From Halochromatium sp. (GTDB taxonomy: Bacteria; Pseudomonadota; Gammaproteobacteria; Chromatiales; Chromatiaceae): a DNA stretch of 64,000 bases. The DNA lies in assembly GCA_010912705.1 (NCBI GenBank), contig POWB01000019.1:1-64000 (forward strand). The letters run 5' to 3'. Shown piece by piece: positions 12,823 through 39,470 of the stretch (within the stretch, counting starts at the first letter, position 1; every line of letters begins with the position of its first letter). Made by a program: the position numbers and the translations under genes. The notes under the pieces are model-generated. The model saw only the letters and a list, made by a program, of their open reading frames with translations, was not told where the DNA came from and did no database searches.

Positions 12823-12833
12823 GAGGAACTGTT

Positions 12834-13294: not shown

Positions 13295-13305
13295 CAGTCA
13301 ATTTT

Positions 13306-13883: not shown

Positions 13884-13887
13884 CGGT

Positions 13888-15330: not shown

Positions 15331-15333
15331 CGG

Positions 15334-23660: not shown

Positions 23661-25148
23661 ATGAACGATCTGGCGGCGGGTGTTTTCAAACCAGCGCTCT
23701 CCGAGCAGGATATCAACGCTGGCTTTGTACCGCTCCTTGGTGACTTGGCGACGGTTCCCGCGGATTATCTGAGCGAGGTTGCCCAGACCAAGCGTGGCCT
23801 AGAGCGCTGGGTGAGCGATGCCAACTTTCGCGCCGCCTATGAGGACGACCCGGTCGCAGCACTCGCTGGGGCTAAGATTGATCTGATCCCAGATCAGATG
23901 ACGCCACTGATCCAGCGTGAAGCCGCATTACGCTTAAATGAGGCGATAAACGCCGGCGAAACCGATACCTATCCAACCTCTGTCCTGCGCTATCGCGCCT
24001 TCATCCGCGAGAAGATTCGTCATCGCCGCGAGCATCGGCTCGATAACCAGCCACGCCATCCACGGATGGCGAAATGGTGGCGCCGACAGGTCTATCGACT
24101 GGCTGGTCAACTCGGCTCGCAGAAGGCCGACCGTATTGTGCATGCACCGGCCGCGTTCGAGCTCTCAAAAGGCTGCTCGGTGCACTGCTGGTTTTGCGCG
24201 CTCCGTGCCGAGCATCTTAAGGCGAATTGGGAATATGGCCCCGAGACCTCGCGTCAATGGCGCGAGATCTTGACGCTGATGCAGGAGCTACTCGGTCCGG
24301 CCTTGCGACAAGGCTTTTGTTACTGGGCGACCGAGCCCTTGGATAACCCTGATTACGAGCGGTTCCTTGGTGATTTTCATGCCGTGCTCGGCGGCTGCCC
24401 GCAAACCACCACGGCCCGCCCAACAGCCGATATCGAGCGAACCCGTCGCCTCCTGCGCTTGACCTATGGCTACGGCGTCAACATCGACCGTTTCTCGATC
24501 CTCTCGCTCGGCGTCTTCAACCGGGTCCATGAGGCCTTCAGCGCCGAGGAGCTCTTGCGCGTGGAGCTCCTGCCGCAGAATCCCGACGCCGATGAGCGTC
24601 ACAAGAAGGCACTGGTCGGTCGTGCACAAGACCATGCGCAGCAGCGCGCGCGCGAGCTGAATGCCGAGAGCGCCAGCTCAACCACTGCCTGTCTGTCAGG
24701 GTTTCTCCTCAACATGGTCGAGCACCGCGTCGAGCTGATCACGCCCTGTCCAGCCAGTGCACGCTGGCCGCTCGGCTTTTGGGTGATCGATGCGGCGACC
24801 TTCTCATCGCCTGCGGATCTCGATGCGATCATGCGGCGGATGATCGCCGAGCACATGCCGAGCGATCTTCCCCTGCTCGAGCCAGTGCGGCTGCGCCCCG
24901 ACCTCAGAGTGCGCGTCATCGACGATACCAGCCTCAAGCTCCAGTCGCGCCTGACATTGACGATCTCGAGTCAGCCTTGTGCGCGGCAGCTCGCGGATCT
25001 GCTCGCGAACGGCGACTGCTCGCCGGCGGAGATTGCCGAGCGTCGCGAGCAGGAGGCCGATGTGCCCCAGGCGGAGACCCTCTATCTGCTGCAGGACCTG
25101 TTCGACAAAGGCATCTTCGATGAAGAGCCACGCCCAGCCGCAGAATGA
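23661..25148 (+). CDS. Radical SAM RiPP-maturation amino acid epimerase (PoyD/OspD-like), copy 1
   Basis: Such enzymes invert selected residues of a ribosomal precursor from L to D. They generate a 5'-deoxyadenosyl radical and re-donate hydrogen, usually from a cysteine. The 495-residue product has the cluster motif CSVHCWFC (Cys172, Cys176, Cys179) followed by ALRAEHLK, the internal FCYWATEPLDNPDYE, and the family block ACLSGFLLNMVEHRVELITPCP with Cys344 and Cys363. Residues 41-75 resemble the helical part of the precursor's own leader. It is the first gene of a rightward series, 40 bases before copy 2. The start has no strong Shine-Dalgarno. Assignment to the epimerase group rests on the shared motif order and the precursor context. 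Confidence 0.9.
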   Translation: MNDLAAGVFKPALSEQDINAGFVPLLGDLATVPADYLSEVAQTKRGLERWVSDANFRAAYEDDPVAALAGAKIDLIPDQMTPLIQREAALRLNEAINAGETDTYPTSVLRYRAFIREKIRHRREHRLDNQPRHPRMAKWWRRQVYRLAGQLGSQKADRIVHAPAAFELSKGCSVHCWFCALRAEHLKANWEYGPETSRQWREILTLMQELLGPALRQGFCYWATEPLDNPDYERFLGDFHAVLGGCPQTTTARPTADIERTRRLLRLTYGYGVNIDRFSILSLGVFNRVHEAFSAEELLRVELLPQNPDADERHKKALVGRAQDHAQQRARELNAESASSTTACLSGFLLNMVEHRVELITPCPASARWPLGFWVIDAATFSSPADLDAIMRRMIAEHMPSDLPLLEPVRLRPDLRVRVIDDTSLKLQSRLTLTISSQPCARQLADLLANGDCSPAEIAERREQEADVPQAETLYLLQDLFDKGIFDEEPRPAAE

Positions 25149-25188
25149 GCGCAGAATGAGCGCTTAACTCAACAGCGAGGTCCGAGAC

Positions 25189-26718
25189 GTGGCCTATGAC
25201 GGAGGTTCCTCCTTCCCGGAGCACGAATGGTCAGCGGGTTTTGTGCCAGTGCTCAATGGCCTAGAGGGAGTCGACGGCGCTTATCTGGACGACGTTGCAG
25301 CGGTCAAACGCGCCCTCGAGCAGTGGAATCTACATGCCGCGCTGCGCGCCACCTGGCCAGCTGATCCAGCCGGCGCGCTCGCTCGCTACCAGATTCCGCT
25401 CCCGGCCGAGACCCTGACGCCCTTGTTCGATGCCGAGCAAGGCGATCGCCTGCGCCAGGCGGTGCTGAACGGGGAGGATCTCGTGGATCTCCCGCTCGCG
25501 CTGCGCCGCTATCTTGCCTTCATGCGCGAGCTGCTGCGGTGGCGCGATCACTATCGCCAAACCTGCGAGCCTGCGCATCCGCTGATGCGCGCTTGGTGGC
25601 ACCGGCAAGTGGCGCGGATTCGCTCTCAGCTTGGTCCGACCAAGGCCGATGCGATCGTCCATGCCCCCGTTGCCTTTGAGCTCAACAGCGGCTGCTCTGT
25701 CGGTTGCTGGTTCTGTGCCCTCAGCGCGCCAGCACTCCAAGCCGTGTGGCCGTATTCGCCAGCGCATCGCCAACAGTGGCAAGCTATCCTCAGGGTGACC
25801 CATGAGGTGATTGGCCCCGCCGCGGCCCAGGGCTTTTGCTACTGGGCGACGGAGCCATTCGACAATCCTGATTACGAGCGTTTCCTGTTGGATTTTCACG
25901 CCGTGCTGGGACGCTTCCCGATGACGACCACGGCCCTACCCATGCGTGATGCGAAGCGCACGCATGCCTTGATCGAGCAGCACCGGCGGCTCGATCCCGG
26001 GCTTGATCGCTTCTCGGTGCTCTCAACCGGGATCGCCGCTCGGATTCATGCCGAGTTCAGTCCGCGCCAGCTGCTGCTGACCGAGCTCTTGCCGCAGAAT
26101 AAAGGCGCCAATCCCAAGTTTCGCAAGGCACGCGCGGGCCGTGCACTCAGGGCGAAGACTGGCCCTAATCAGCTCGATCAGTTCAGCAAGGCACCGACGA
26201 CCATTGCCTGCGTCTCCGGTTTTCTGATCAATCCCTGCGAGCACCGCGTCCAGTTGATGACGCCCTATCCCGTCTCGCCGTCCTCGCCGCAGGGCTTCCA
26301 GGTCTTGGCAACAGGGCAGTTTTCGAGCGCTGAGCAGTTGCGTGACCTGCTGGAATCCATGATCGCATCGCAGATGCCGATGGACCTGTCCTGGCAGGCC
26401 GAGGTGAGACTGCGCTCGGATCTCGTCGTCAGCAGCCCGACAGCGAATCAGCTTCGATTCAAATCAGCCTTCACAAGCTTGAACTTTGGCGGGGTGACTG
26501 GTGCGACGCAATTCGCCGCACTGCTGAGCCAAGGCGCAATGACGGCGGCAGAGCTTGCAGAGGCGCGTGAGCAAGCGCTCGATATTCCGCCCGAGCAATC
26601 ATTTTTTATGATCGATCAACTTCGCCAGCATGGACTGCTAGACGAGACAGTGTTTGCGCGTTCGTCGTCGGCTTATCGCGATTCCGATGGGTCATGCAAC
26701 GAACGCGCGGGCGGGTGA
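25189..26718 (+). CDS. Radical SAM RiPP-maturation amino acid epimerase-like protein, copy 2
   Basis: This 509-residue paralog of the upstream gene keeps the same layout. It has a leader-like helical segment near 35-70, cluster motif CSVGCWFC (Cys169, Cys173, Cys176), FCYWATEPFDNPDYE, and a C-terminal block ACVSGFLINPCEHRVQLMTPYP. Compared with copy 1, the second cysteine of the block (Cys363 there) is tyrosine (Tyr360), while a new cysteine (Cys350) replaces the valine of NMV. Because hydrogen re-donation relies on a specific cysteine in PoyD-type enzymes, this copy could differ in target, direction or activity. GTG start at 25189, 41 bases before the precursor gene. Confidence 0.88.
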   Translation: MAYDGGSSFPEHEWSAGFVPVLNGLEGVDGAYLDDVAAVKRALEQWNLHAALRATWPADPAGALARYQIPLPAETLTPLFDAEQGDRLRQAVLNGEDLVDLPLALRRYLAFMRELLRWRDHYRQTCEPAHPLMRAWWHRQVARIRSQLGPTKADAIVHAPVAFELNSGCSVGCWFCALSAPALQAVWPYSPAHRQQWQAILRVTHEVIGPAAAQGFCYWATEPFDNPDYERFLLDFHAVLGRFPMTTTALPMRDAKRTHALIEQHRRLDPGLDRFSVLSTGIAARIHAEFSPRQLLLTELLPQNKGANPKFRKARAGRALRAKTGPNQLDQFSKAPTTIACVSGFLINPCEHRVQLMTPYPVSPSSPQGFQVLATGQFSSAEQLRDLLESMIASQMPMDLSWQAEVRLRSDLVVSSPTANQLRFKSAFTSLNFGGVTGATQFAALLSQGAMTAAELAEAREQALDIPPEQSFFMIDQLRQHGLLDETVFARSSSAYRDSDGSCNERAGG

Positions 26719-26759
26719 CACGTTCGTGTCGACATACATTTAAACAGAGGTAATGGGTC

Positions 26760-27302
26760 ATGGCAGCGAGCATCAAAGCAAAGACCGTTTATGGCGCGGC
26801 AATCGCCAAGAGCTGGAAGGACGCGAGCTATAAGCAGCGACTGATCGATGATCCCAAGGCCATGCTGAAGGAAGAGGGACTTGATGTCCCGGCTGACGTC
26901 AGCGTGAAGGTGCTGGAGGATAGCGATCAGATCAAGCACATCGCACTTCCGCCCGACATGCATCAGGATCATCCCGACAAGGATAAGCTCTATGCCTTTC
27001 TCGAGAAGAGCTTCCCGCTCGAGTCCGGACAAGAGATTCGTCTGGTACAGAATTCAGACAAGCTGCGATACCTGACGATCCCGGTCGCGGCCGTCGCTGG
27101 GGCGACGGTGATCAGCGACGACGACCTCGACCAGGTCGCCGGCGGTGATTCCGAATCCGTCAATACCAATACCACTGAAGAACTCGAGGCCGAGACAACC
27201 GAGGTCACGGTGACCGAAACGAGCGAGGTTCAGGATACTGAGACCTCAACCACGGCGGTAGCCGAGGCAGAGGTCGCAGTCGTGCCAGGGTTGATCACCT
27301 GA
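26760..27302 (+). CDS. NHLP-leader RiPP precursor peptide (proteusin type)
   Basis: The 180-residue precursor has a nitrile-hydratase-like leader: KSWKDASYKQRLIDDPKAML near residues 17-36 and VSVKVLEDSDQIKHIALPP at 47-65. The strand-turn-strand part then repeats as IRLVQNSDKLRYLTIPV (93-109). Cleavage is predicted after DLDQVAGG (Gly128-Gly129). The core, residues 130-180, has 51 residues with 13 Thr, 13 acidic and 8 Val, and no Lys, Arg, His, Cys, Trp, Tyr, Phe or Met. It ends VPGLIT. Its alternating Thr/Val/Glu pattern is what epimerases and C-methyltransferases of the polytheonamide kind act on. The neighbouring genes are its likely maturation and export machinery. ATG with AGAGGTAA upstream. 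Confidence 0.9.
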   Translation: MAASIKAKTVYGAAIAKSWKDASYKQRLIDDPKAMLKEEGLDVPADVSVKVLEDSDQIKHIALPPDMHQDHPDKDKLYAFLEKSFPLESGQEIRLVQNSDKLRYLTIPVAAVAGATVISDDDLDQVAGGDSESVNTNTTEELEAETTEVTVTETSEVQDTETSTTAVAEAEVAVVPGLIT

Positions 27303-27402
27303 TTCAGCGACGATCGCGGATCGCCATCAAGCGCCGGTACCCGGCTGGGTCTTGCACCTGCCTGCGCACCCGAGCGGGACATCGGCGTCTTGAAGCAGCG
27401 AG

Positions 27403-28656
27403 ATGACTGAGCTTTATCGATCGGAGGCCTTACAGCGGCTCCGGAATCCCGAGCAGCTCGACTCCCTGTTGCGCCTGGCGCATCCGTCTGCCTGGGCCAT
27501 TCTCGGCATTCTTGCGGTCCTGATCGGGCTCACCCTCACCTGGGGCTTTCTCGGCAAGATCCCGATCCGGGTCAACGGCCTCGGGGTCATCACCGCAGCT
27601 CAGGCCTCGATCTATCGACTGCAAGCCCAAGCGAATGGCATCATCCGCTCGCTGCCTGTCGCCGTCGGCGAGCCGGCCGAGGCCGGCGCGACCCTCGCCA
27701 CGCTCGCCTTGCCCGTTGATGAGGCCGAGCTGATGAGCGCTGAGCAAGCCCTTGAGCTTGCGCGTCAACAGTACGCCACGCAGCGCCGATTCTTGGATGA
27801 GGACACCGCTCTGCGTCAACAGACCACGCAGCAAGTCGAGCAGACGCTGCGCTCGGTGATCAAGGACAGTCAGGAGCAATTACAGTTCTTGCGCGAGCTG
27901 CTCGAGCTGCAATCGGCGGCCTTGGAGAAAGGCTATTACACGCGGCAGCAGGTTGAATCGACGCGCTCTGGCCTCTTCGAGACCCAGCAATCGATTGCCC
28001 AGGCACGCGATCAGATCGCACAAAACCGACTCGCATTGAGCGAGTCGGAGAACCAGAACCGACGCCAAGCGCTCGAGCTGCAAACCGCCGTGGCGCAGGC
28101 GGAAGCCCCGGTGAAACGGTTACGCGCCATGCTGGAGGAAGAGCAGGTGATCGTCAGCCCGGTTGCGGGTGTGGTGACCGAGCTCGACATCGCCCTGGGC
28201 GCACTGGTGGAGGCCGGGCAGGTCGTTGCCATCGTCGAGCAGCGTTCGGACACCTTGAGTGCGGTCGGCTACTTCGGCATCGGCCAAGGCAAGCAGATCG
28301 AGCCGACCATGGAGTCCGAGATCTCGCCACTGTCGGTCGAGCGAGATCGCTATGGCAGCATTCGCGCCAAGGTCGAGTCCGTCAGTCGCCTGCCGGTCAC
28401 CGAGGATGCGCTGGTCGCGCGCCTGGGCAATCCCACCCTGGCCTCGACCCTGCTGAGCGCCGGAGCACCGATCAGCGTCAACTTGACGCTCGAGACCGAC
28501 CCCAAGACCGCGAGCGGCTTGCGCTGGACCTCCTCGCAAGGTCCGCCCGTCGAGATCACGCCGGGCGATACCGCGGCCATGTCGGTGGTGGTGCGCGAGA
28601 TTCCGCCAATCCAGTATGTGATCCCGCTGTTCGAGGCCTGGACGCGTGGCAACTGA
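27403..28656 (+). CDS. HlyD-type membrane fusion protein of the NHLM exporter
   Basis: The 417-residue protein has a short cytoplasmic N-terminus, one membrane anchor near 29-50 (WAILGILAVLIGLTLTWGFL), and a lipoyl-like half near 63-110. Long coiled-coil helices rich in Gln/Glu/Arg span about 110-240. The second lipoyl half follows (VIVSPVAGVVTELDIALGALVEAGQVVAIV) near 245-280, with a C-terminal beta domain. This is the adaptor that joins an inner-membrane ABC exporter to an outer-membrane channel. In NHLP clusters it is the secretion-protein member. It ends inside the start of the next ABC gene (11-base overlap). Confidence 0.92.
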   Translation: MTELYRSEALQRLRNPEQLDSLLRLAHPSAWAILGILAVLIGLTLTWGFLGKIPIRVNGLGVITAAQASIYRLQAQANGIIRSLPVAVGEPAEAGATLATLALPVDEAELMSAEQALELARQQYATQRRFLDEDTALRQQTTQQVEQTLRSVIKDSQEQLQFLRELLELQSAALEKGYYTRQQVESTRSGLFETQQSIAQARDQIAQNRLALSESENQNRRQALELQTAVAQAEAPVKRLRAMLEEEQVIVSPVAGVVTELDIALGALVEAGQVVAIVEQRSDTLSAVGYFGIGQGKQIEPTMESEISPLSVERDRYGSIRAKVESVSRLPVTEDALVARLGNPTLASTLLSAGAPISVNLTLETDPKTASGLRWTSSQGPPVEITPGDTAAMSVVVREIPPIQYVIPLFEAWTRGN

Positions 28657-30835
28657 GCAGGGTACGAAAGGCGCGCCGAAACGTCGGGTTCGGACCCCGA
28701 GCCTCCTGCAGATGGAGGCCGTCGAGTGTGGCGCAGCAGCGCTCGGGATCATCCTTGCCTACTATGGCCGTTGGGTTCCGCTCGAGACACTGCGCGTCGA
28801 GACCGGTGTCTCTCGTGACGGCGCGAAGGCCAGTAACATCGTCAAGGCAGGGCGCCATTACGGGCTGCACAGCCAGGGCCTCAAGCTCAGCCTCGAGCAG
28901 GTCCTGGAACTACCGCCGCCGTTCATCGTCTTCTGGAATTTCAATCATTTCGTCGTCTACGAGGGGCGCGACCGCACCCAGGTCTTTCTCAATGATCCAG
29001 CGGTCGGGCCGCGTCGGGTCAGCCACGAGGAGTTTAGCGATGGCTTTACCGGTGTGGCGCTGCAGATGGAGCCAGGCCCGGGGTTCGAGACCGGCGGCGA
29101 GCGCACCAGCCTGTTTCAATCCTTGAGGACGCGTCTGCATGGCGCCGAAGGGGTCATGTCGATCGCCATTGTGGCCACCTTCATGCTGGTGGTGCCTGGG
29201 TTATTGATGCCGGCGCTGCTCAAGACCTTTATCGATGACGTTCTGGTGCGCGGTGCAAACACCTGGATTCTGCCACTCTTGGTCGGACTGGTCCTGGTGG
29301 CGATCTTCACGATCCTGATCACCTATCTGCAGCAGCGTTATCTCTTGATCTTGCGCACGCGGCTCGCAATCACCTCCGCGAGCCAGTTCTTTTGGCACGT
29401 GCTACGCGTGCCCCTTGTCTTCTATACGCAACGCTATGCCGGTGATGTCGCCTCTCGGGTGCAATCTTGCCACCGCTTGGCATCGCTCTTGTCTGGCCCC
29501 TTGTCGTCGACCTTGGTCGATCTGCTGACGATCGGTTTCTATCTGCTGGTCATGCTGATCTACAGTGTCGAGCTGACCCTCATCGTGCTCGGCTTCTCCC
29601 TACTCGGGCTCGCGATCGCGGCGCTCATGCGTGGGCAGCTCTCGGATATCAATAACCGACTGCTGAAGCAAAACGGCAAGCTGATGGGTGCCTCGATGGC
29701 CGGCCTACAGGCGATGGATACGCTGAAGGCCAGCGGTAGCGAGCGCGACTTCTTTGCCACCTGGGCTGGCCATCAAACGGTGATGACCAATTCCCAACAG
29801 CACCTTGGCATCAGCTCACGCCTGCTCTCGTCGGCGCCAAATCTGCTCAATCAAGGCCTCACCGCCTCAGTCCTCGGGCTCGGCGGACTCTTGATCATCC
29901 AAGGTCAGCTCACGGTCGGCGCCCTGATTGCATTTCAAAGCATGATGTCGCACGTCACCAGTCCCATTCGACACCTCATCGGCTTCACCGGGACCTTGCA
30001 GACCGCGAAGGGGGAGATCCAGCGCATCAACGACGTGCTCGATTATCCCGTCGATCCACTGCTGGCCACTGACAGCGACGCATCGCAGGCTCAGCCCGAG
30101 CGCCGACTGCAACGTTTATCCGGGCGCATCAGCATGCGTCATGTGACCTTTGGCTATAACCATCTCGAACCCCCACTCATCGAGGATTTTTGTCTCGAGG
30201 TCGAGCCAGGACAGCGCATCGCCTTGGTCGGCTCATCTGGGAGCGGAAAATCCACCATCGGTCGCCTGTTGCTCGGACTCTATGCACCCAGCTCCGGGAG
30301 CATTCTCTACGACGGGCAGCCGCTTGCAGCGATCCCGCGTGAGCGCTTCACGGCCTCGGTAGCCGCTGTGGATCAGGACATCAAGCTGTTCGATGGCAGT
30401 GTGCTCGAAAACCTGCGCCTCTGGAGTCCGAGCATCAGTGAGTCCGCCGTGGTGCGTGCCGCCGAGGACGCCTGCATCCATGAGACGATTGCGGCACGAC
30501 CCAATGGCTATGAGAGCGAGGTGGGTATCGCGGCGCCCAGCTTCAGCGGCGGGCAAGCTCAGCGGCTCGAGATCGCCCGCGCGCTCGTGCGCGACCCGCG
30601 CATCCTGATCATGGATGAGGCGACCTCGGCCCTAGAGCCGCTGACCGAGCAGACGATCGATGCGAACCTGCGTCGGCGCGGCTGTACCTGCATCATCATC
30701 GCCCACCGCCTGAGCACGATTCGCGACAGCGATGAGATCATCGTGCTCGATCATGGCAAGGTCGTTGAGCGTGGTGATCACGAGACGCTGCTCGCCCAGC
30801 GCGGCAGCTACTACGAGCTCGTGCGGGCGCAATGA
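28646..30835 (+). CDS. NHLM peptidase-containing ABC exporter
   Basis: The 729-residue protein combines three parts. The N-terminal C39 peptidase has catalytic Cys28 in LQMEAVECG, His101 in FNHFVVYEG and Asp117 in FLNDPAV. A transmembrane domain spans about residues 160-450, and an ATPase has Walker A GSSGSGKST near 529-537, signature FSGGQAQRLE and Walker B ILIMDEATSAL. The peptidase should cut the precursor after Gly128-Gly129 while exporting the core. The signature begins FSGGQ rather than LSGGQ, a mild deviation. GTG start at 28646, overlapping the HlyD gene. Its stop overlaps the next ATG (ATGA at 30832). Confidence 0.94.
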   Translation: MATEQGTKGAPKRRVRTPSLLQMEAVECGAAALGIILAYYGRWVPLETLRVETGVSRDGAKASNIVKAGRHYGLHSQGLKLSLEQVLELPPPFIVFWNFNHFVVYEGRDRTQVFLNDPAVGPRRVSHEEFSDGFTGVALQMEPGPGFETGGERTSLFQSLRTRLHGAEGVMSIAIVATFMLVVPGLLMPALLKTFIDDVLVRGANTWILPLLVGLVLVAIFTILITYLQQRYLLILRTRLAITSASQFFWHVLRVPLVFYTQRYAGDVASRVQSCHRLASLLSGPLSSTLVDLLTIGFYLLVMLIYSVELTLIVLGFSLLGLAIAALMRGQLSDINNRLLKQNGKLMGASMAGLQAMDTLKASGSERDFFATWAGHQTVMTNSQQHLGISSRLLSSAPNLLNQGLTASVLGLGGLLIIQGQLTVGALIAFQSMMSHVTSPIRHLIGFTGTLQTAKGEIQRINDVLDYPVDPLLATDSDASQAQPERRLQRLSGRISMRHVTFGYNHLEPPLIEDFCLEVEPGQRIALVGSSGSGKSTIGRLLLGLYAPSSGSILYDGQPLAAIPRERFTASVAAVDQDIKLFDGSVLENLRLWSPSISESAVVRAAEDACIHETIAARPNGYESEVGIAAPSFSGGQAQRLEIARALVRDPRILIMDEATSALEPLTEQTIDANLRRRGCTCIIIAHRLSTIRDSDEIIVLDHGKVVERGDHETLLAQRGSYYELVRAQ

Positions 30836-33800
30836 GCGAAGCGGAGCCGTCAGCGGTGGTCCCTAACGGCAGCGCTAAGGCTGCAGCAATGGATCACGAG
30901 GGCTTCAAAGGCTCCAAGGGCTCCGAGGCTGCAGCAACCTTGCTCGAGCTGCTCGGCGAGGAGCGCACACAGTTACCCAGCCGCGGCAGTCACCAGAGCT
31001 TTCGTACCAGCCGCGCCGACCGCTGTTGGCTCGTGGTCTCCGGGGCGCTCGATCTGTTCCTCTCGAGCACGAGCACAACAGCGCCGGGGAGCACAGGACC
31101 GCGCTACTACCTGGCAACCTTGCAGCCGGGCTGCTTGTGCTATGGAAACGACCAGCGCGCACTGCTGTTGGCGGTGCCACAGCAGGGAACGCAGCTGCTC
31201 GAGCTCGACACCGAGCGCCTGCAGGCTTTGTACGCTTCTGCCTCTGCCTCTGCACCCGCTGACACCTCAGCGACCGCTGCCCAGGCGCTGGTGGTAGCCG
31301 CCGAGCTCAGCGTCCGCGCCTTGGCGGCGACACCTCGCTTGCCGGCACCGACTCCGGCGCTGCGGGTGCTCACCGAGCCCGAGCCGGTCCAGCTCGCCGA
31401 CGGCGACAGCCTGCAGGCCGCTCAGCGTCAGCTGTTCTGGCTGCTGAGCGATCGCAACGCCCTTTGGCTGTGCAATGTCGAGGACAGCCAGAGCACCGAG
31501 CCGGCACCGCTGCCGACCAGCCGCGGCCTCTGGTATCAGGCCCAGGCCGAGCAACAGGTTAGGGTACAGACCACCGCAAGCCTGTTAGCGGCAGGTGGCT
31601 TGCACGCGGCGCTCGGGCACTTTCAGAACCGACTGCTGAGCGCCGCTGCGGCTGGTCTTGAGCAGCTGGAAGAGCAGGCCTCGGCGCAGCTCGAGCAAGC
31701 CGAACGAGCCGCCGACTCTCAGGTTGAATCCGCACTCTGGTCGCTCGCCGCGATCCTGCGGACGCGTCGACAGCGGGTGCCCACCCCCTCGCCGGAGCCC
31801 TTGATCAATGCCCTGTGGCTGGTCACTGATTTCTACGAAATCCCGCGGCCGAGCGAGGATGGGCTGGGTCCGGCCTTGAGCAGCGATGACCCCATGCTTG
31901 CGCTCGCCCAGCGCGCCGGCATGTTCGTCCGCTCGGTCGAGCTCAGCGGTGCCTGGTGGAAAGACGCGCAAGACCCGCTGCTCGCGCGGCAAGCGGTCGA
32001 TCAGCGGCCTGTGCTGCTGCTGCCTGGACGGCGTCGGCGCTACCGCTGCATCGATCCGGCAACCGGTAGCAGCCAGCTCGTCGATGCCAAGCTTGCTGAA
32101 ATGCTCGACAGCAGTGCGCGGACCTTCTATCGGCCCTTTCCCAACGAGCCGCTCGGCGCCAGCCGGATTCTATTCTTCGGCCTGCGGGGATCAGGTCGCG
32201 ATGCCCTTGTGGTCATCTTGCTGATCCTGCTGTCTGGCATCCTTTCGTTGGCGCTGCCAACCCTCACGGAGCGCGTTTTTGATCCGATCGTGCCGCTCGC
32301 CGAGCGCGGACAGCTCCTCGTCGTCTGTCTGGCCATCCTGGTCGCCGGTCTCGCCCAGCAGGGCTTTGGGCTGCTGCAAGGGCTTTCCCTGCTGCGCGTC
32401 GAGGGGCGCGTCACGATGTCGGTGCAGGCAGCGGTGTGGGATCGGCTACTGAAACTGCCGGCGAGCTTCTTTCAAGACTATTCCGCGGGCGATCTCGCCA
32501 ATCGCGCCATGAGTGTCGATGCCATGCGGCGCTTGCTCTCCAGCTCGGCGCTTGCCGGCATCTCCCACGGGGTGATCGCAAGCTTCAGCCTCGGCTTATT
32601 GCTCTATTACGATTGGCGAGTCACCTTGCTGGTGTTGGTCTCGGTGCTGCTCTACAGCGGCATCGCTCTGTACGCAGGGCGGCGGGTGATGAAGAAGAAT
32701 CGCATCATCCTCAAGCGTGAAGGTCAGCTGCAAGGGGTGGTGCTGCGCTTGTTGGATGGCTTGACGAAGCTGCGTGTCGCCGGCGCCGAGCGCAACGCCT
32801 TTGCGCGCTGGGGAAGGCTGTACGCGGAGCTGCAGCAGACCAGCTTTCGGCAACAGAGCCTCGAGAATACCCTCACCGTCTTCAAGGCCGGGTTTTCACA
32901 CTTCGCCCTGGTTGCGGTCATCGTTGCCATCAGCCTGCAAGGGCAGGAGCTGCTCGCCTTCTATCAAACGCCGCAGGATTGGGCACAGCTGGACAATCAG
33001 CGCCTACAGGAGATCATGCCAACAGGGCGCTTCGTGGCCTTTCATGTCGCGCTAGCCCAATTTCTCGGCGGCATCTTCGGGCTCATCAGCCTGCTGGTTC
33101 GCCTGAGCCTGCTTCCTGCCTACTACGAGCGTGTCGAGCCGATCCTGAAGACCGCGACCGAGAACGAGGCCGGCGCTGCCGACCCCGGCGAGGTCGAAGG
33201 CCGTGTCGACATCGAAAACGTCTTCTTCCGCTACGCACCGGATGCGCCCTTGATCCTGAAAGGCGTCAGCCTGCGAGCCGATCCGCATGAGATGATCGCC
33301 ATCGTCGGCCCCTCTGGCGCGGGGAAATCGTCGTTGATTCGCCTCATCCTTGGCTTCGAGAAGCCCGAAGGCGGCTCGATCTATCTGGACGGAAAAGACA
33401 TCAGCAACCTCGACAAGCATGCGATGCGTCGCCGCTTTGGCGTGGTGATGCAGAATGGCCGCCTGCTCGCCGGCTCGGTCTATCAAAATATCGCCGGGGG
33501 CGCGCAGTTGAGTCGCGAGCAGGTGATGGAGGCGGTCCAACTCGCCGGCTTCGATCGCGATCTGGCCGAGATGCCAATGGGCCTGGATACCCATCTGAGC
33601 GAGGGGGCGTCGACGCTGTCCGGTGGTCAGCGACAGCGCCTGATGATTGCCCGCGCGGTCGTGCATCGTCCGCGTGTGCTGATCTTTGATGAGGCGACCA
33701 GCGCCTTGGACAACCGCAGTCAGAAGGTGGTCACGGAAGGGCTAGAGCGTTTGAACAGCACGCGCATCCTGATCGCCCACCGGTTGAGCACCATCGTCCA

Positions 33801-33915
33801 TGCCGACCGCATCTACGTGATCGATCAAGGAACAGTGGTAGAAACCGGAACCTATGAAACGCTGCTTGCAGGCGATGGCTTGTTCGCCAAGCTAGCCCGG
33901 CGGCAGATGCTTTGA
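30832..33915 (+). CDS. NHLM second ABC transporter subunit with long N-terminal extension
   Basis: The 1027-residue protein has about 440 residues of N-terminal extension without membrane segments. In the NHLM family this part recalls cyclic-nucleotide-binding folds (FRTSRADRCWLVVSGALDLFL near 57-77), but no clear nucleotide pocket is visible here. The extension is followed by a transmembrane domain of about six helices (residues 455-745) and an ATPase with Walker A GPSGAGKSS near 826-834, signature LSGGQRQR, and DEATSAL. It is the partner of the upstream peptidase-ABC in NHLP systems; whether the two act as a heterodimer is not known. Overlaps its neighbours by four bases on each side. Unusually rich in Leu, Ala and Gln in the extension. 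Confidence 0.92.
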   Translation: MSEAEPSAVVPNGSAKAAAMDHEGFKGSKGSEAAATLLELLGEERTQLPSRGSHQSFRTSRADRCWLVVSGALDLFLSSTSTTAPGSTGPRYYLATLQPGCLCYGNDQRALLLAVPQQGTQLLELDTERLQALYASASASAPADTSATAAQALVVAAELSVRALAATPRLPAPTPALRVLTEPEPVQLADGDSLQAAQRQLFWLLSDRNALWLCNVEDSQSTEPAPLPTSRGLWYQAQAEQQVRVQTTASLLAAGGLHAALGHFQNRLLSAAAAGLEQLEEQASAQLEQAERAADSQVESALWSLAAILRTRRQRVPTPSPEPLINALWLVTDFYEIPRPSEDGLGPALSSDDPMLALAQRAGMFVRSVELSGAWWKDAQDPLLARQAVDQRPVLLLPGRRRRYRCIDPATGSSQLVDAKLAEMLDSSARTFYRPFPNEPLGASRILFFGLRGSGRDALVVILLILLSGILSLALPTLTERVFDPIVPLAERGQLLVVCLAILVAGLAQQGFGLLQGLSLLRVEGRVTMSVQAAVWDRLLKLPASFFQDYSAGDLANRAMSVDAMRRLLSSSALAGISHGVIASFSLGLLLYYDWRVTLLVLVSVLLYSGIALYAGRRVMKKNRIILKREGQLQGVVLRLLDGLTKLRVAGAERNAFARWGRLYAELQQTSFRQQSLENTLTVFKAGFSHFALVAVIVAISLQGQELLAFYQTPQDWAQLDNQRLQEIMPTGRFVAFHVALAQFLGGIFGLISLLVRLSLLPAYYERVEPILKTATENEAGAADPGEVEGRVDIENVFFRYAPDAPLILKGVSLRADPHEMIAIVGPSGAGKSSLIRLILGFEKPEGGSIYLDGKDISNLDKHAMRRRFGVVMQNGRLLAGSVYQNIAGGAQLSREQVMEAVQLAGFDRDLAEMPMGLDTHLSEGASTLSGGQRQRLMIARAVVHRPRVLIFDEATSALDNRSQKVVTEGLERLNSTRILIAHRLSTIVHADRIYVIDQGTVVETGTYETLLAGDGLFAKLARRQML

Positions 33916-35741
33916 GCGACCACCAGATGCAAACAGCCGATCCCGCCGCCCGCCGCTCTCCGATCACCTTCAAGTGCGCGCCCGCTGAAGAGACGGTCGC
34001 GCGTCTTCAGCGCGGCTTTGCCCAGCTTGGCCTGGAGCCCAGCCTGGAGCAAGGCCGCGCAGCCCCGGATCTCGACCTCTGGTGGGTGCGGGTGCGCTGC
34101 GCCGGCCTGGGGCTTGAAGCGGCAGGCAAAGGCGTCTCGCCGATCCTGGCGCAGGCTAGCGCACTCGCCGAGCTCGCTGAGCGCTTCTCGGCCGGTCTCT
34201 ACTGTCGGGCCTTACGCTTTCGCATGCCCATCCAACGCACCGATGATGCGCACGCCGAGGAGGATGCTGATCCCTTTCGCCGGCGCTATGAGCGATTTCG
34301 CTGTTTTGATGCGCTACCCGGCTATGTCGCCGCGCGCGCGTCGGAACTCGACGCGGCGCTGTCGCTGACTCGGCTGTTGGCCCCTAAGGTCATTGGTTCC
34401 GCCGAACAACAGACCTTGGCGTCACACTCGAGCACGGCGCATTGGATCGACGGCCTCGCCGTGGCTGACCGCCGTCCGGTCAAGGTTCCGTTGGCGTTGA
34501 TCGAGCTCACCTCGGGCACCAATGGCTTGGCTGCCGGCAACAGCCTTGACGAGGCCATCATTCAAGGCACCAGTGAGGTCCTAGAGCGCTATGCCGCGGT
34601 CAAGGTGATCACCGAACGGCTGCGAATCCCGACCATCGATCCGACGACCCTGCCGAAGATAGCGGCGATCGAGCAATTCTTGGCCTACTGCAAGGCGCAC
34701 GGGATCGAAGTGCTTATCAAGGATTTTTCATTGGGTCATGGTCTGCCCTGCATCGGCATGCTGATGATCGATCCGCGCATGCGGGATGCGGCCAATCCGC
34801 TGCAGACCGCCTATGCGTATCAGCGGTTTCGGGTCGCCGCATCGCCGAATCCGATCGAGGCCCTGACGCGCTGTATCACCGAAGAGGGACAAAGTCGCTG
34901 GCGCGTGCTCCAGAGCGGCGACGCCAATCCCTACCATCTGCTCTGGCATCGTCTACTGAAGCATCTGCCGACCACCGCCACCACCATCAACGACAACTAT
35001 CCGCTGTTACGCAGCTACGAATACCCTGGCGACCTGAGCTTCCTGCGCGAGGGTGAGCGGGTCGACTTTCCAAGCCCACCGCAAGGAGCTGATTGTCGCA
35101 GCGAGATCGCCGCCTTGAGCGCCGCCTGTGCGGCCCTCGGCAGCGAGCTGATCGTCGTCGATCACACCCATCCGGTGTTGCGCTTTCCGACTGTGCGGGT
35201 CGTCGTGCCTGGCGTGTCGACGATCCTCTGCCGGCTCGATCAGCAAGCCGGCTTGGATCTGGATCGTCTTGCGGCGATCACCGACGATTTCTGTGTTCAG
35301 GGTCGGCGATTCTATGAGACCGATGATTGGCTGGATGATCCCGCTGCCCGCGCTAAGCTTGCCGATCGTTTGCTCGATCATCTGCGTCAGCATCTGAGCC
35401 TGATCCTGCACGATAGCGGCTTGCCAAGACAGCCAATCAATAGCCTTGAGCTGCTCGCCCCCTTGCTGTTGGAGCAAGGGCAGGTGGCGGCGTTTGCCGC
35501 CTGCTGCGGGCTGCTGGCCGATCTGCCAGGACCTCATGGCGAGCACTATCGCGCGCTGGCCTCGCTCGCAACGACCGAAGACCAGGCACTCCTGCAAGCC
35601 AGGCTGCAGCAACCGCCCTATCGCCATCTGTTCCGGTTGCTCGCCCAGCCGCAGCGCAATCCGCTGCGTGCCGCCGATCGCGCATCCGCCAAGGCGCCCC
35701 TGCAACGACTGATCGAGGGCTTTTATGCTCGCTCCACCTGA
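33912..35741 (+). CDS. YcaO-domain protein of the RiPP cluster
   Basis: YcaO proteins use ATP to activate a peptide backbone amide for azoline, thioamide or amidine formation. The 609-residue product carries the paired nucleotide-binding signatures: GKGVSPILAQASALAELAERFS near residues 73-94 and GLAAGNSLDEAIIQGTSEVLERYAAVK near 205-231, plus a late helical C-terminal part from about 490. I see no TfuA, E1-like/ocin-ThiF or dehydrogenase partner in the window, so the reaction type is open. The first possible start is TTG at 33912, overlapping the ABC stop; ATG at 33927 is an alternative, with no clear Shine-Dalgarno for either. The cluster is otherwise tightly spaced. Confidence 0.82.
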   Translation: MSDHQMQTADPAARRSPITFKCAPAEETVARLQRGFAQLGLEPSLEQGRAAPDLDLWWVRVRCAGLGLEAAGKGVSPILAQASALAELAERFSAGLYCRALRFRMPIQRTDDAHAEEDADPFRRRYERFRCFDALPGYVAARASELDAALSLTRLLAPKVIGSAEQQTLASHSSTAHWIDGLAVADRRPVKVPLALIELTSGTNGLAAGNSLDEAIIQGTSEVLERYAAVKVITERLRIPTIDPTTLPKIAAIEQFLAYCKAHGIEVLIKDFSLGHGLPCIGMLMIDPRMRDAANPLQTAYAYQRFRVAASPNPIEALTRCITEEGQSRWRVLQSGDANPYHLLWHRLLKHLPTTATTINDNYPLLRSYEYPGDLSFLREGERVDFPSPPQGADCRSEIAALSAACAALGSELIVVDHTHPVLRFPTVRVVVPGVSTILCRLDQQAGLDLDRLAAITDDFCVQGRRFYETDDWLDDPAARAKLADRLLDHLRQHLSLILHDSGLPRQPINSLELLAPLLLEQGQVAAFAACCGLLADLPGPHGEHYRALASLATTEDQALLQARLQQPPYRHLFRLLAQPQRNPLRAADRASAKAPLQRLIEGFYARST

Positions 35742-35807
35742 CCTCCAAACGCAACAAGGCAGAGAGCCGAGCGTTGATGAGTCTGTCATCTTCGGTTGTC
35801 AGAGCGA

Positions 35808-37949
35808 ATGGGCATATCGATCATGAAGCAGGATCTTGAACGCGGATTGTCGATGCAGGCGCTTGGGATCGATGTCACCAGCCAGCAGAATGATTTGATC
35901 GGTCCGCTGCCGTCGTCGACCGATGTCTGCCTGGTCTCGATGCCCTTCGCGCCGCTGCCGCGGCCATTGCCTGCGCTCGGTCTGCTGGAGGCCGCGCTCA
36001 AGGCGGCGGGGATTCGGGTGACCGGCTGCTACTTCAACCTCTGGTTTGCCAGGCTGTACGGGAGCCGTTACCACGATTGGCCCTATAAGGCGCTGAAGTT
36101 CTACCTGGCCGATTGGCTGTTTGGTGCAGCGGCCTTTGGCCCGGCACCCGACAAAGACGAGACCTATTTACGGGCACTGACCCGTTATCTGCTCGGCGCG
36201 AGGGCAGAGGAGCCAGCACAGGCCGAGGCCTTTCACGCGCTCTGTGTGCAATATCGCCAACGCGCGACGGATTTTACCGAGCAGGCCGCGCGCTACCTGA
36301 TCGCCTCAGGCGCGCGCGTCATCGGTTGTAGCTCGAATTTCCAACAGCATGGCGCCTCGCTGGCCTTGCTGCGGGCGGTCAAACGTCTGGCGCCAGAGAG
36401 GATCACCCTGCTCGGCGGCGCGAATTGCGAGGGGCCGATGGGAGCGGCGACGCATCGCTGTTTTCCTTGGGTGGATTATGTGGTCTCTGGAGAAGGCGAA
36501 GAGGTGATTGCACCGCTGGTCAAGGTGATCACTGTGCATGGCCGGGATCTGCCGCTCACCGAGCTGCCAGCGGGTGTCTGGGCACCGGCGAATCGACAGG
36601 CCGGCAAGGCCGGCTACGAGCGGCCCCATCAGGAACGTTTTGCGTCCTGTACGCAACTCGATAAGGGTCCGATTGCCGATTATCAGAGCTACTTTGACTG
36701 GCTAGGGCACTTGGGCTTACGCCAGCACATCCGCATCGGGATACCCATCGAAGGCTCACGTGGCTGCTGGTGGGGGCGCTGTGCCTTTTGCGGCCTCAAC
36801 GGCGAGCGACTGCGTCAGCGGACCAAGCCACTGTCGCGCGTCCTCGAGGAGATGGATGCGTTCGAGCAGCGCCACCAGTGTCGAGATTTCGAGCTGCTCG
36901 ACAATGTGCCACCGCCGAGATTGCTGCGCGAGCTCACGCAGTATCTTGGCGAGCAGGTCGGCGAGCAGGCCACTAGGCGGCGACTCTTTTGTGAGGTGCG
37001 CGCCGGCATGAATCGCGAGCAGATTCGGGCACTGGCGCTGGCCGGCATCCATTATGTGCAAGCCGGGGTCGAGGGCCTGCACAGTGACCTGCTGGCGTTG
37101 ATGAACAAGGGCACCCAGGCTTGGCAGAACGTGCAGCTACTGAAATGGACCCGAGAGTTCGGAATCCTCTGTACCTACAATCTGCTCTGGGGTATGCCGG
37201 GGGCGCAGGATCGATGGTACGCGGAGACGGCCGCCTGGCTGCCGGCGATCGAGCATCTGGCTCCCGGCGTCCTGCTCGGTCTGCGCTTCGATCGCTTCAG
37301 CGACTACCACCGTAATCCGCAGGCCTATGGTCTGCGGCTGCAGCCACACCCATCGATGCCGCTGGTGTATCCGCTCGCCGACGACGACTTGGCCGAGCTG
37401 TCCTATTTCTTCGAAGATGCCCCGGTCCCGATCTCGGCCGATGGTCATTTCGACCTCAAAGGGGTTGGCGCGGAGAAGATCCCGCCCGAGGTGATGACAC
37501 TGCTGCAGGCGACCCAACACTGGGTCGAGCGTTTCTTTCGCTCGCGTCTGCAACCGATCCTCGCCCGCTCCGACAGCGAGCGCGGGCTGGAGCTGCTGGA
37601 TACGCGCCAGTGCGCTGTGCAGAGGCTGCATCTATTGCACGATCAGGAGGCGCAACTGTACCGCCTGATTGATGCGGCTCCACCAATCGAGCGGGTCCAG
37701 GCCAAGCTAGCTCAGAAGCAGGGTTTGATCCTCAAGGATGCGGAGTTCGATCGCATGCGTGCGGAGTTGATCGACGCCCGCCTCGCGATCGAGCTCGACG
37801 GTCGCCTCATCGGCCTGGCGATTCGCGGTGAGCAGCCGGCACTGCCAAGCCATAAGGACTTTCCAGGTGGTCGAGTCATCCGTCCATGGCGGGGTGTCAC
37901 CAATCCTGGTGTTGAGCGTTTAGCGGGGTATAACCAACCCTGGTGTTAA
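35808..37949 (+). CDS. B12-binding radical SAM RiPP-maturation protein (probable C-methyltransferase)
   Basis: The 713-residue protein has an N-terminal cobalamin-binding-like domain with SMPFAPLPRPLPALGLLEAALK near 44-65, CSSNFQQHG near 174-182 and GGANCEGPMGAA near 203-214. A radical SAM domain follows with SRGCWWGRCAFCGLNG; cysteines sit at 320, 325 and 328 (CX4CX2C). This motif and context fit the RiPP-maturation radical SAM group that transfers methyl groups to unactivated carbons. The spacing between the first two cysteines is shorter than the CX7C I recall for the family. ATG at 35808 is chosen; TTG 35796 and ATG 35823 are possible. The last 20 or so residues are encoded by an imperfect tandem repeat and look like an acquired tail. 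Confidence 0.88.
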   Translation: MGISIMKQDLERGLSMQALGIDVTSQQNDLIGPLPSSTDVCLVSMPFAPLPRPLPALGLLEAALKAAGIRVTGCYFNLWFARLYGSRYHDWPYKALKFYLADWLFGAAAFGPAPDKDETYLRALTRYLLGARAEEPAQAEAFHALCVQYRQRATDFTEQAARYLIASGARVIGCSSNFQQHGASLALLRAVKRLAPERITLLGGANCEGPMGAATHRCFPWVDYVVSGEGEEVIAPLVKVITVHGRDLPLTELPAGVWAPANRQAGKAGYERPHQERFASCTQLDKGPIADYQSYFDWLGHLGLRQHIRIGIPIEGSRGCWWGRCAFCGLNGERLRQRTKPLSRVLEEMDAFEQRHQCRDFELLDNVPPPRLLRELTQYLGEQVGEQATRRRLFCEVRAGMNREQIRALALAGIHYVQAGVEGLHSDLLALMNKGTQAWQNVQLLKWTREFGILCTYNLLWGMPGAQDRWYAETAAWLPAIEHLAPGVLLGLRFDRFSDYHRNPQAYGLRLQPHPSMPLVYPLADDDLAELSYFFEDAPVPISADGHFDLKGVGAEKIPPEVMTLLQATQHWVERFFRSRLQPILARSDSERGLELLDTRQCAVQRLHLLHDQEAQLYRLIDAAPPIERVQAKLAQKQGLILKDAEFDRMRAELIDARLAIELDGRLIGLAIRGEQPALPSHKDFPGGRVIRPWRGVTNPGVERLAGYNQPWC

Positions 37950-38042: not shown

Positions 38043-39470
38043 CTAAGGCAGGCTGATCTCGAAGAGCTTGTGGCGGACCTGGTCGATATCGGCCCAGACA
38101 TTCAGCGTTGAGACCGGCAGATCCAATGCCTTCGGACTCAGTTGGCCCATCAGCGCCAGCAAGCTAGCCTGAGCAATATAGCGGTCATATTTAACCATCA
38201 CCTGATTTTCTAGCGCCGAGTCCAACTGGGTCCGCACATCGAGGACATCCTTGATGGTCGAGGTGCCGTCGCGGAGCTGGCGCTCGAAACCCTGCAGTGT
38301 TTCCTGATAGGCCGCGACCTCGTCCGCAACGCTCAGCTGCTCGGCCAGTGCCGACTGCCATTGCCCCCAGGTGGTTTCAATTGCTGAGGCTAGTTGCACC
38401 GAGGTACTGCGGGCTTGGCTCTTCGCGGCCGTGTAGACGGCTTCCGCCTCACGCACTTGTGAGCGCACGAGTCCGCCTTGGAAGAGTGGGATCTCCAGCT
38501 GCACGCCGACCGACCAGTCATCCTCGCGCTCCAGCTCGGTATAGTCCGCCGCGCTGGTAAATCGGGATTTATCCCAGCTGCGAGTGAGTTGCGAATAGGC
38601 AACGACGTTTGGCAGCAAGCCGCCGCGCTCGACGTCGATTTCGGCGCGTGCTGCCTCTGCGCTCAGCAAGGCCGAGCGCAACGAAGGATTCGCGGTTCGC
38701 GCCTTGACTTGGATTGCTTGCAGGGTCGCGGGCAAGGCCGGCAGCTCGGTCCCGCCCTGCTCGATCTGCTCGGGGACCATCCCGGAAACCGCGCGATACT
38801 GACTCAGGGCCTGGGCCAGCGAGCCTTGCAAGGCGGCCTTTTGCGAGCGCGTCTGGGCCAGGCTGGCCTTTGTTTGCGCCAAGTCGGTGAGCGTGATCAG
38901 TCGACTCGAGAACAGGTCCTCCGACTCGACCATGAGCTTGACCAGGAACCGCTCGATATCGGCATTGAGCGCAATGAGCTCATGGTAGAGCAACAGGCTT
39001 CCATAGGCCTGAATGGCTTGCAGCAGGGTCTGGGCGACCGTGGCATCGAGCTGGGCGACGGCGCTCGCGACCTGCGATTCCGCCGAGCGCTGATTCGCCG
39101 AGCGCGCACCGCCTTGATAGAGGTAAATCGACGCCTCGAGCTGTACCGAACGGTCCGTCGTGACCTCGTCGAGATCATTGATCGTCGTGCCAGCTTGACC
39201 ACGATCCCGAACGTCTTGCCGAATCCAGGATCGCCCCTCTTGGGCGACGAGATCGATGGTCGGAAAAAAGGCCGAATTGGCCTGAGGCAGCAGCTCGGCG
39301 GTTGCACGCACCTGCGCTAAGGCGGTCTGAATATCAGGATTGCTCTGGTAGGTCCGCGCCAGCATCAGGCTCAGTGATTCAGCGCGGAGGCCAGAACTGA
39401 TAAAGGCCGTGGCGAAAGCGATTGCCAGCAGTCGGTGTCTTCGTGGTTGCCTGAAGCTGGTCATCGTCAA
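38043..39470 (-). CDS. TolC-family outer membrane channel protein
   Basis: The 475-residue protein has an N-terminal signal sequence (basic MTMTSFRQPRRHRLL, hydrophobic core, AES cleavage region near residues 29-32). Two long TolC-type helical halves follow, each ending in a beta-barrel segment, with SVQLEASIYLYQGGARSANQRSAES near 107-131 and LEIPLFQGGLVRS near 320-332, the paired repeats of the family. It is convergent with the RiPP operon, 93 bases away. With the HlyD adaptor and ABC exporter it would complete a type I secretion route to the outside. A dedicated role is inferred from position only. Confidence 0.9.
   Translation of the reverse strand: MTMTSFRQPRRHRLLAIAFATAFISSGLRAESLSLMLARTYQSNPDIQTALAQVRATAELLPQANSAFFPTIDLVAQEGRSWIRQDVRDRGQAGTTINDLDEVTTDRSVQLEASIYLYQGGARSANQRSAESQVASAVAQLDATVAQTLLQAIQAYGSLLLYHELIALNADIERFLVKLMVESEDLFSSRLITLTDLAQTKASLAQTRSQKAALQGSLAQALSQYRAVSGMVPEQIEQGGTELPALPATLQAIQVKARTANPSLRSALLSAEAARAEIDVERGGLLPNVVAYSQLTRSWDKSRFTSAADYTELEREDDWSVGVQLEIPLFQGGLVRSQVREAEAVYTAAKSQARSTSVQLASAIETTWGQWQSALAEQLSVADEVAAYQETLQGFERQLRDGTSTIKDVLDVRTQLDSALENQVMVKYDRYIAQASLLALMGQLSPKALDLPVSTLNVWADIDQVRHKLFEISLP

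What the first reader, a model, noticed from the sequence alone, without database searches (positions are those of the whole stretch)
23661..37949. Proteusin-type RiPP cluster with two epimerases, YcaO and a B12 radical SAM enzyme
In one rightward, mostly overlapping gene series lie two PoyD/OspD-like radical SAM epimerases, an NHLP-leader precursor, an HlyD adaptor, a C39-peptidase ABC exporter, a second ABC, a YcaO protein and a B12-binding radical SAM enzyme. The precursor and both exporters are of the NHLM/NHLP type. No dehydratase or lanthionine-forming enzyme is present. Established: epimerases plus cobalamin radical SAM enzymes make polytheonamide-like peptides. The combination with a YcaO lacking an obvious partner, and two non-identical epimerases for a single core, is one I do not know to be described. 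Inference: the product would be a D/L-alternating, C-methylated, possibly azoline or thioamide-containing secreted peptide.
Basis: partly seen in the sequence, partly recalled or inferred. Interest (0 to 1): 0.92.

Follow-up and report, generated by a model that had tools for sequence, protein, structure and literature searches.

The report
Acidic proteusin peptide cluster, purple bacteria
A bacterium of the purple sulfur group carries genes that look set to make and export an unusually acidic, heavily modified peptide with mirror-image amino acids, using a conserved pair of flipping enzymes plus a YcaO enzyme without its usual partner; related machinery is known, but this combination and this peptide look new.

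Summary
At 23661-37949 lie two full-length PoyD-type radical SAM epimerases, an NHLP (proteusin) precursor, HlyD, two NHLM exporters, a YcaO and a B12 radical SAM C-methyltransferase; TolC at 38043-39470 probably belongs too. The gene set recurs in two other genomes of the same family. One, inferred to be Rhabdochromatium marinum, keeps the epimerase pair on another contig yet has one NHLP precursor over the model's cut-off, so pair and core seem to go together. The 51-residue core is Glu/Thr/Val-rich, Cys-free, net -12 to -13, and constrained (dN 0.02-0.14, dS 0.96-1.27). Both epimerases keep the FeS motif and the putative H-donor Cys. The YcaO keeps the invariant Glu residues; no TfuA was found and no azoline-partner model passes its cut-off in the three genomes. 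Its best solved relative is E. coli YcaO, a TfuA-free thioamide synthetase, though it forms a separate lineage. Best reading: a new proteusin subfamily whose product carries D-residues, C-methyls and a YcaO modification, perhaps a thioamide. Epimerase, cyclodehydratase and B12 radical SAM enzyme together are already published (nostatin A); the epimerase pair, partnerless YcaO, acidic core and short CX4CX2C motif differ. The chemistry is untested.

The parts
23661..25148 (+). EpiA: PoyD-type radical SAM peptide epimerase, 495 aa; CSVHCWFC cluster motif, putative H-donor Cys344
   Evidence: TIGR04517 468.8 bits; Cys172/176/179 and Cys344 invariant in 11 of 11 epimerases aligned; ortholog group set apart with support 100
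25189..26718 (+). EpiB: second, diverged PoyD-type epimerase (47% to EpiA), 509 aa, GTG start
   Evidence: TIGR04517 419.1 bits; 47% identity; same four Cys columns; own clade, support 96
26760..27302 (+). Precursor, 180 aa: NHLP leader with a repeated segment, GG at residues 128-129, 51-aa Cys-free acidic core
   Evidence: TIGR03793 77.1 bits; leader repeat reached by 2 of 1000 shuffles; core net charge -13; 79% and 78% identical orthologs
27403..28656 (+). HlyD-type NHLP secretion adaptor
   Evidence: TIGR03794 241.8 bits; 70% and 71% identical in the two relatives
28646..30835 (+). C39-peptidase ABC exporter (NHLM ABC1), GTG start
   Evidence: TIGR03796 977.4 bits; Peptidase_C39 113.7 bits
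30832..33915 (+). Second NHLM ABC exporter subunit (ABC2), 1027 aa
   Evidence: TIGR03797 786.1 bits over residues 322-1026
33912..35741 (+). YcaO enzyme, 609 aa, TTG start assumed; YcaO domain 71-435 plus 174-aa C-terminal extension
   Evidence: PF02624 175.5 bits; Glu87/90/222/225/324 invariant in 18 of 18 YcaOs; best solved relative E. coli YcaO 4q84, E 1.7e-21
35796..37949 (+). B12-binding radical SAM C-methyltransferase, 717 aa, TTG start assumed; CX4CX2C motif
   Evidence: TIGR03975 531.2 bits; motif comparison
38043..39470 (-). TolC-type outer membrane channel, probable exit duct
   Evidence: PF02321 178.6 bits, under NCBIfam TIGR01844 cut-off (202.7 against 225.15); ortholog lies divergently beside the precursor in both relatives, 58% and 56% identity
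27303..27402 (+). Possible hairpin between precursor and HlyD (attenuator-like; inference)
   Evidence: MFE -44.1 kcal/mol, z -2.12, 4 of 200 shuffles as stable

Best explanation
This is a proteusin-type RiPP cluster of a member of the Chromatiaceae (purple sulfur bacteria). Inferred steps: the ribosome makes a 180-residue precursor; enzymes recognise its NHLP leader; EpiA and EpiB flip core residues, probably different subsets, from L to D by radical alpha-H abstraction and Cys-mediated H return; the B12 radical SAM enzyme C-methylates core side chains (Val likely); the YcaO activates one or more backbone amides with ATP and, lacking TfuA and a recognised E1-like partner, most likely swaps in sulfur to give a thioamide (my weight, given that it is active: thioamide about 0.5, azoline about 0.25, amidine or other about 0.25). 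The C39 domain of ABC1 cuts after Gly-Gly, and ABC1/ABC2-HlyD-TolC export a 51-residue polyanionic peptide. Shown: gene content, recurrence, motifs, core constraint. Not shown: every chemical step, its timing and the peptide's function.
For: Seven of the eight genes pass NCBIfam cut-offs and the YcaO passes Pfam's and TIGR00702's. Same set in R. marinum and G081. Epimerase pair over cut-off in 3 of 194 family genomes, the same 3 in which the precursor search gave a full-length match (one search had 28 of 194 genomes with some match; those outside the three cover leader or short pieces). One NHLP precursor over cut-off in G000 and in G011. Core dN 0.018-0.135 against dS 0.96-1.27. Four catalytic-type Cys in both epimerases (PMC8326336 passages on PoyD Cys372). 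YcaO Glu residues kept (that they bind ATP is recalled); TfuA in 0 of 3 genomes, control positive in Methanosarcina acetivorans; no TIGR03882 match over cut-off in 3 genomes; relation to E. coli YcaO, which thioamidates uL16 with ATP, Mg and Na2S and without TfuA (PMC13063428); dsrA over cut-off in 3 of 3 genomes and in 0 of 14 controls. No Cys in core 1, 3 of 3.
Against: The YcaO tree puts the three in a long-branched lineage outside the E. coli YcaO clade, and the profile comparison stops before the C-terminal extension. E. coli YcaO needs a folded substrate (peptides from digested uL16 were not modified; PMC13063428), whereas a RiPP core is presumably unfolded. The in vitro work used a nonphysiological sulfide concentration (same paper). 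G081's second precursor has two Cys, where azolines are possible, and the epimerase pair stands next to it. Sub-cut-off TIGR03882 matches (17.6-32.2 bits) exist in all 3 genomes, as in 6 of 14 controls, so an unlinked partner is not excluded. The own genome is 89.8% complete, so absences are weak there. The YcaO model had pLDDT 42.6 and gave no structural support. The core is no more conserved than the leader (leader dN 0.069-0.153). A sulfide-rich habitat is inferred from dsrA. No product mass is known.
Confidence: 0.6

Rival explanations
1. The YcaO forms methyloxazolines or oxazolines from Thr/Ser, as in the azole proteusins, recognising the leader itself or through an unlinked partner.
For: 13 Thr and 4 Ser in the window core; NHLP plus cyclodehydratase is a classic pairing (PMC2887384, passages) and nostatin A carries azoles; G081's second core has two Cys; sub-cut-off TIGR03882 matches in all 3 genomes.
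Against: No E1-like part seen in the 609-aa YcaO by NCBIfam or Pfam (RRE domains were not searched for by a dedicated method); no TIGR03882 over cut-off; no dehydrogenase among the cluster proteins; the NPIP end that closes the 3 azoline-type references is absent; no Cys in core 1.
Confidence: 0.2
2. The epimerase pair serves another precursor; the Glu/Thr core is modified by the YcaO and the C-methyltransferase only.
For: In R. marinum the pair sits on another contig; in G081 the pair follows the second, Cys-bearing precursor.
Against: G000 and G011 have a single NHLP precursor over cut-off; the pair occurs only in the 3 of 194 family genomes with this core; in the window the pair directly precedes the precursor. 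Precursors with another leader type were not searched genome-wide.
Confidence: 0.12
3. The YcaO acts on a cellular protein such as ribosomal uL16, as in E. coli, and its place in the operon is incidental.
For: Best solved relative is E. coli YcaO; the own genome, 89.8% complete, gave no other YcaO match with this query.
Against: Its assumed start overlaps ABC2 by 4 bases; it is linked to the exporter and C-methyltransferase genes in 3 of 3 genomes; 7 of 7 same-genus genomes gave no match; it lies outside the E. coli YcaO clade.
Confidence: 0.04
4. An ordinary azole-type proteusin cluster with decayed or irrelevant extra genes.
For: Every gene belongs to a named family.
Against: The modifying enzymes keep the residues checked and the core is under constraint.
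Confidence: 0.04

Closest known systems
Nostatin A cluster (nst; PMC11583998, passages read)
   Same: NHLP-type leader, PoyD-like epimerase NstF, B12 radical SAM C-methyltransferase NstA, thiazoline/oxazoline-forming cyclodehydratase NstD
   Different: One epimerase named; has oxidase and LanM-like enzyme; azole-bearing core. Here a pair of epimerases, no oxidase or LanM found, Cys-free acidic core
Carnazolamide / dehydrazoles (cca; PMC10676384, passages read)
   Same: NHLP leader, YcaO, radical SAM epimerase
   Different: YcaO/dehydrogenase pair, LanMbC, S-methyltransferase, Cys-rich core, one epimerase acting on one Pro
Pythonamide (ere; PMC9259500, passages read)
   Same: 46-aa core, epimerase EreD making D-Val and D-Ala, B12 radical SAM EreB C-methylating Val
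   Different: N-methyltransferase and hydroxylase; the five genes named there include no YcaO and one epimerase
Polytheonamide (poy; PMC8326336, passages read)
   Same: PoyD-family epimerase, proteusin leader; B12 radical SAM C-methyltransferase PoyC (title in a reference list seen)
   Different: No YcaO, one epimerase, neutral core (these three points recalled)
E. coli YcaO (PMC13063428, abstract and passages read)
   Same: YcaO without TfuA or RRE; similar N-terminal region; a C-terminal extension
   Different: Acts on folded uL16; separate clade

Membership tests
Proteusins | NHLP (nitrile hydratase-like) leader followed by GG and a C-terminal core | tested here: met
   TIGR03793 77.1 bits, cut-off 50.9; GG at 128-129 then 51 residues
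Proteusins | Core actually post-translationally modified | not testable with these tools
   needs mass spectrometry
PoyD-type RiPP epimerases (TIGR04517) | Score over the curated cut-off | tested here: met
   468.8 and 419.1 bits against 325
PoyD-type RiPP epimerases (TIGR04517) | CX3CX2C motif and one further conserved Cys | tested here: met
   four Cys columns invariant in 11 of 11; equivalence of Cys344 to PoyD Cys372 is inferred, no PoyD sequence was aligned
RiPP B12 radical SAM C-methyltransferases (TIGR03975) | Score over the curated cut-off | tested here: met
   531.2 bits against 281.85; orthologs 543.8 and 506.8
RiPP B12 radical SAM C-methyltransferases (TIGR03975) | FeS motif spacing seen in the other members examined (not a published criterion that I read) | tested here: not met
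   the three: CX4CX2C; 8 others: CX7CX2C in 7, CX8CX2C in 1
Azol(in)e RiPPs (LAP/TOMM) | YcaO with an E1-like cyclodehydratase part | tested here: not met
   none in the protein or cluster by NCBIfam/Pfam; no TIGR03882 over cut-off in 3 genomes, weaker matches in all 3; TIGR03603 and TIGR03693 not searched genome-wide
Thioamidated RiPPs (YcaO-TfuA) | TfuA beside YcaO | tested here: not met
   PF07812 0 of 3 genomes; control M. acetivorans positive
uL16-modifying YcaO (E. coli type) | Passes NF040716 and groups with E. coli YcaO | tested here: not met
   86.9 bits against cut-off 700; separate lineage in a tree of 18

The most novel reading that the evidence does not exclude
A TfuA-free YcaO of E. 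coli-like build has been recruited into a proteusin pathway of sulfide-oxidising bacteria and places backbone thioamides, while two dedicated epimerases divide the core between them, giving a secreted polyanionic peptide that is D-residue-bearing, C-methylated and thioamidated: a kind of RiPP that my literature searches did not turn up.
Probability: 0.33. Interest if true: 0.8.

Novelty: new variant of a known kind. Interest (0 to 1): 0.58.

Why it matters
If the pair divides the labour on one core, the system lets one ask directly how radical SAM epimerases choose residues, using two paralogs and one natural substrate. If the YcaO is a thioamide synthetase, it would be a TfuA-free one acting on a peptide, testable next to E. 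coli YcaO. The constrained acidic core (40 of 51 residues shared with each relative, 50 of 51 between the relatives) suggests a fixed role rather than a diversifying toxin; that last point is inference.

Tried and rejected
AlphaFold2 of the YcaO (3 sequences, pLDDT 42.6) and of the precursor (2 sequences, pLDDT 44.2) were too poor; no fold search was run. A test for i,i+2 spacing of Glu in the core gave nothing (3 pairs; 1736 of 5000 shuffles at least as many). No Rfam match at gathering score in 17000-45000, so no riboswitch seen there. No epimerase relative in phage records. The single genome-contig scan with the three-sequence YcaO alignment gave 3 loci: the R. marinum cluster and two distant YcaOs in which I recognised no RiPP context. 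A C-terminal PxPxP pattern was a useless test: it matched none of 18 YcaOs, azoline-type references included; their shared end is NPIP, in 3 of 18 and not in the window's protein. Considered and dropped: YcaO as uL16 enzyme; epimerases as remnants; azole proteusin proper.

Rows left out of counts: for the epimerase set 4 plasmid records were fetched (H16, H17, H20 with 49 records; H36 with 70); the frame-broken epimerase pieces of G280 were compared by piece and not aligned. The YcaO tree used 5 of the 15 listed plasmid hits of 37 records. For the FeS motif I read 17 loci (173 of 369 genomes had a match, 7 over cut-off including the own; one of these, G752, is split over two ORFs); the ten below cut-off had CX3CX2C (7) or CX4CX2C (3). 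YcaO was searched in 142 relatives, epimerase and precursor in 194 family genomes; the sets overlap but differ. Core borders were cut by a crude pattern.
Full report
Observation. EpiA and EpiB pass TIGR04517, the precursor TIGR03793, HlyD, ABC1 and ABC2 TIGR03794, TIGR03796 and TIGR03797, the B12 enzyme TIGR03975; the YcaO passes PF02624 and TIGR00702. Three of seven junctions overlap; four have gaps of 40 to 100 bases. The convergent TolC gene at 38043-39470 was not in the finding but probably belongs: its ortholog lies divergently beside the precursor in both relatives. It passes Pfam's cut-off and misses NCBIfam's.

Conservation. A protein search with the YcaO over 142 related genomes matched 10, of which three score above 600 bits: the own genome, G011 and G081. 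G081 carries precursor 1, HlyD, ABC1, ABC2, YcaO, B12 enzyme, a second precursor with a Cys-bearing core, EpiA and EpiB in one row. R. marinum carries precursor, HlyD, ABC1, ABC2, YcaO and B12 enzyme on one contig and the EpiA-EpiB pair on another, in a draft of about 210 contigs. Over 194 family genomes TIGR04517 passes its cut-off in three, each time as a pair; one more genome has a single partial relative below cut-off. The precursor search over the same 194 matched 28 at E 0.1 or better, but the full length only in these three; the rest match leader or short pieces. In 398 genomes of the phylum only the own genome passes the epimerase cut-off; one other has a frame-broken relative and one a 26-position match. 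G000 and G011 each have one NHLP precursor over cut-off; G000 is 89.8% complete. The pair thus follows this core even where it is not adjacent, the strongest evidence that two epimerases serve one core. Against it, in G081 the pair stands next to the second precursor.

Epimerases. EpiA and EpiB are 47% identical and form separate ortholog groups with support of 100 and 96, so the duplication appears older than the split of the three. In 11 epimerases aligned, the three FeS cysteines and one more, Cys344 of EpiA, are invariant. A review reports a single strictly conserved Cys372 in PoyD as proposed H-donor (PMC8326336, passages); that Cys344 is its equivalent is an inference.

Precursor. Leader to GG, then 51 residues. 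A stretch of the leader is repeated once (local score 41, reached by 2 of 1000 shuffles), and the NHLP model matches each of these precursors twice. The window core holds 13 Thr, 11 Glu and 8 Val, no Cys, Lys, Arg or aromatic residue, net -13; the orthologs have one Phe and net -12. It shares 40 of 51 residues with each relative, and the relatives share 50 of 51. Core dS is 0.96 to 1.27 and dN 0.018 to 0.135; leader dN is similar, 0.069 to 0.153. None of the other family precursors printed has such a core.

YcaO. Glu87, 90, 222, 225 and 324 are invariant in 18 of 18 YcaOs and Gln327 in 17; that they form the ATP site is recalled. The protein has 174 residues after the YcaO domain and lacks the NPIP end of the three azoline-type references. 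TfuA was not found in the three genomes while one of 14 controls rings; the fused-cyclodehydratase model finds nothing over cut-off, with weaker matches in all three as in 6 of 14 controls. The nearest solved structure by sequence is E. coli YcaO (E 1.7e-21; hhalign E 6.4e-18 over its residues 9-394), but a tree of 18 puts the three in a lineage of their own. E. coli YcaO was shown in 2026 to thioamidate uL16 with ATP, Mg and sulfide; E. coli has no TfuA and the enzyme no RRE. The authors write that thioamide-forming YcaOs of organisms outside high-sulfide habitats tend to use TfuA and a sulfur carrier; they also found that digested uL16 is not modified (PMC13063428, abstract and passages). 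All three genomes have dsrA over cut-off. From this I favour a thioamide at about even odds.

B12 enzyme. The three orthologs share GCWWGRC(A/S)FC, CX4CX2C. Six other class members over the cut-off and two rhizobial ones have CX7CX2C (seven) or CX8CX2C (one). EreB, a characterised B12 radical SAM enzyme, C-methylates Val in a proteusin core (PMC9259500, passages).

Known or new. Searches of the open-access library: proteusin+YcaO+epimerase 6 papers; three of PoyD/epimerase/proteusin/cluster 38, 30 listed; Chromatiaceae+proteusin 0; 'two epimerases'+RiPP 0; three of YcaO/TfuA/thioamid/standalone 26, 15 listed; proteusin+thioamide 8, seen as a listing apart from passages of PMC10676384; three of radical SAM epimerase/YcaO/C-methyltransferase/precursor 11; phrases for paired epimerases 3, none on RiPPs by title; two of Rhabdochromatium/Thiorhodovibrio/RiPP/bacteriocin/natural product 1,992, of which the 12 listed name neither genus. 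PMC8120280 has no occurrence of NHLP or proteusin in its main text. Within these I saw no pair of epimerases in a RiPP cluster and no thioamidated proteusin; most subscription papers and all supplements were out of reach. Nostatin A and carnazolamide take away the claim that epimerase plus YcaO-type enzyme is unheard of. I file it as a new variant of a known kind.

Noticed in passing
L014 9730-10368: G081 has a second NHLP precursor with the same leader type but a core with two Cys, between the C-methyltransferase and EpiA.
   Followed up: partly
L057 8431-13310; L058 7126-10956: The two rhizobial plasmids looked at carry a compact set: Nif11-type precursor, PoyD-type epimerase, B12 radical SAM C-methyltransferase (L057 also a GNAT gene). 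Of 49 plasmids with an epimerase match 39 are typed conjugative.
   Followed up: partly
27303-27402: Predicted RNA hairpin between precursor and HlyD (z -2.12, 4 of 200 shuffles as stable), perhaps setting the precursor-to-exporter ratio.
   Followed up: no
11164-16965, minus strand: Type I restriction-modification genes (HsdS, DUF1016_N protein, HsdM, HsdR); the HsdR ORF matches only profile positions 245-803 of its best model, so the front part is not in this ORF.
   Followed up: no
9216-10334: Metallo-beta-lactamase-fold protein with a weak match to the defence effector model LmuA (26.7 bits).
   Followed up: no
L032 9992-14812: A Thermoplasmata YcaO of the nearest outside lineage lies beside a C25-family peptidase and a B12-binding radical SAM enzyme.
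   Followed up: partly
23661-25148: The N-terminal part of EpiA (residues 47-84) resembles an NHLP-clan leader model (NF038399, 27 bits, cut-off 40), also in both EpiA orthologs (23.6 and 21.3 bits).
   Followed up: no
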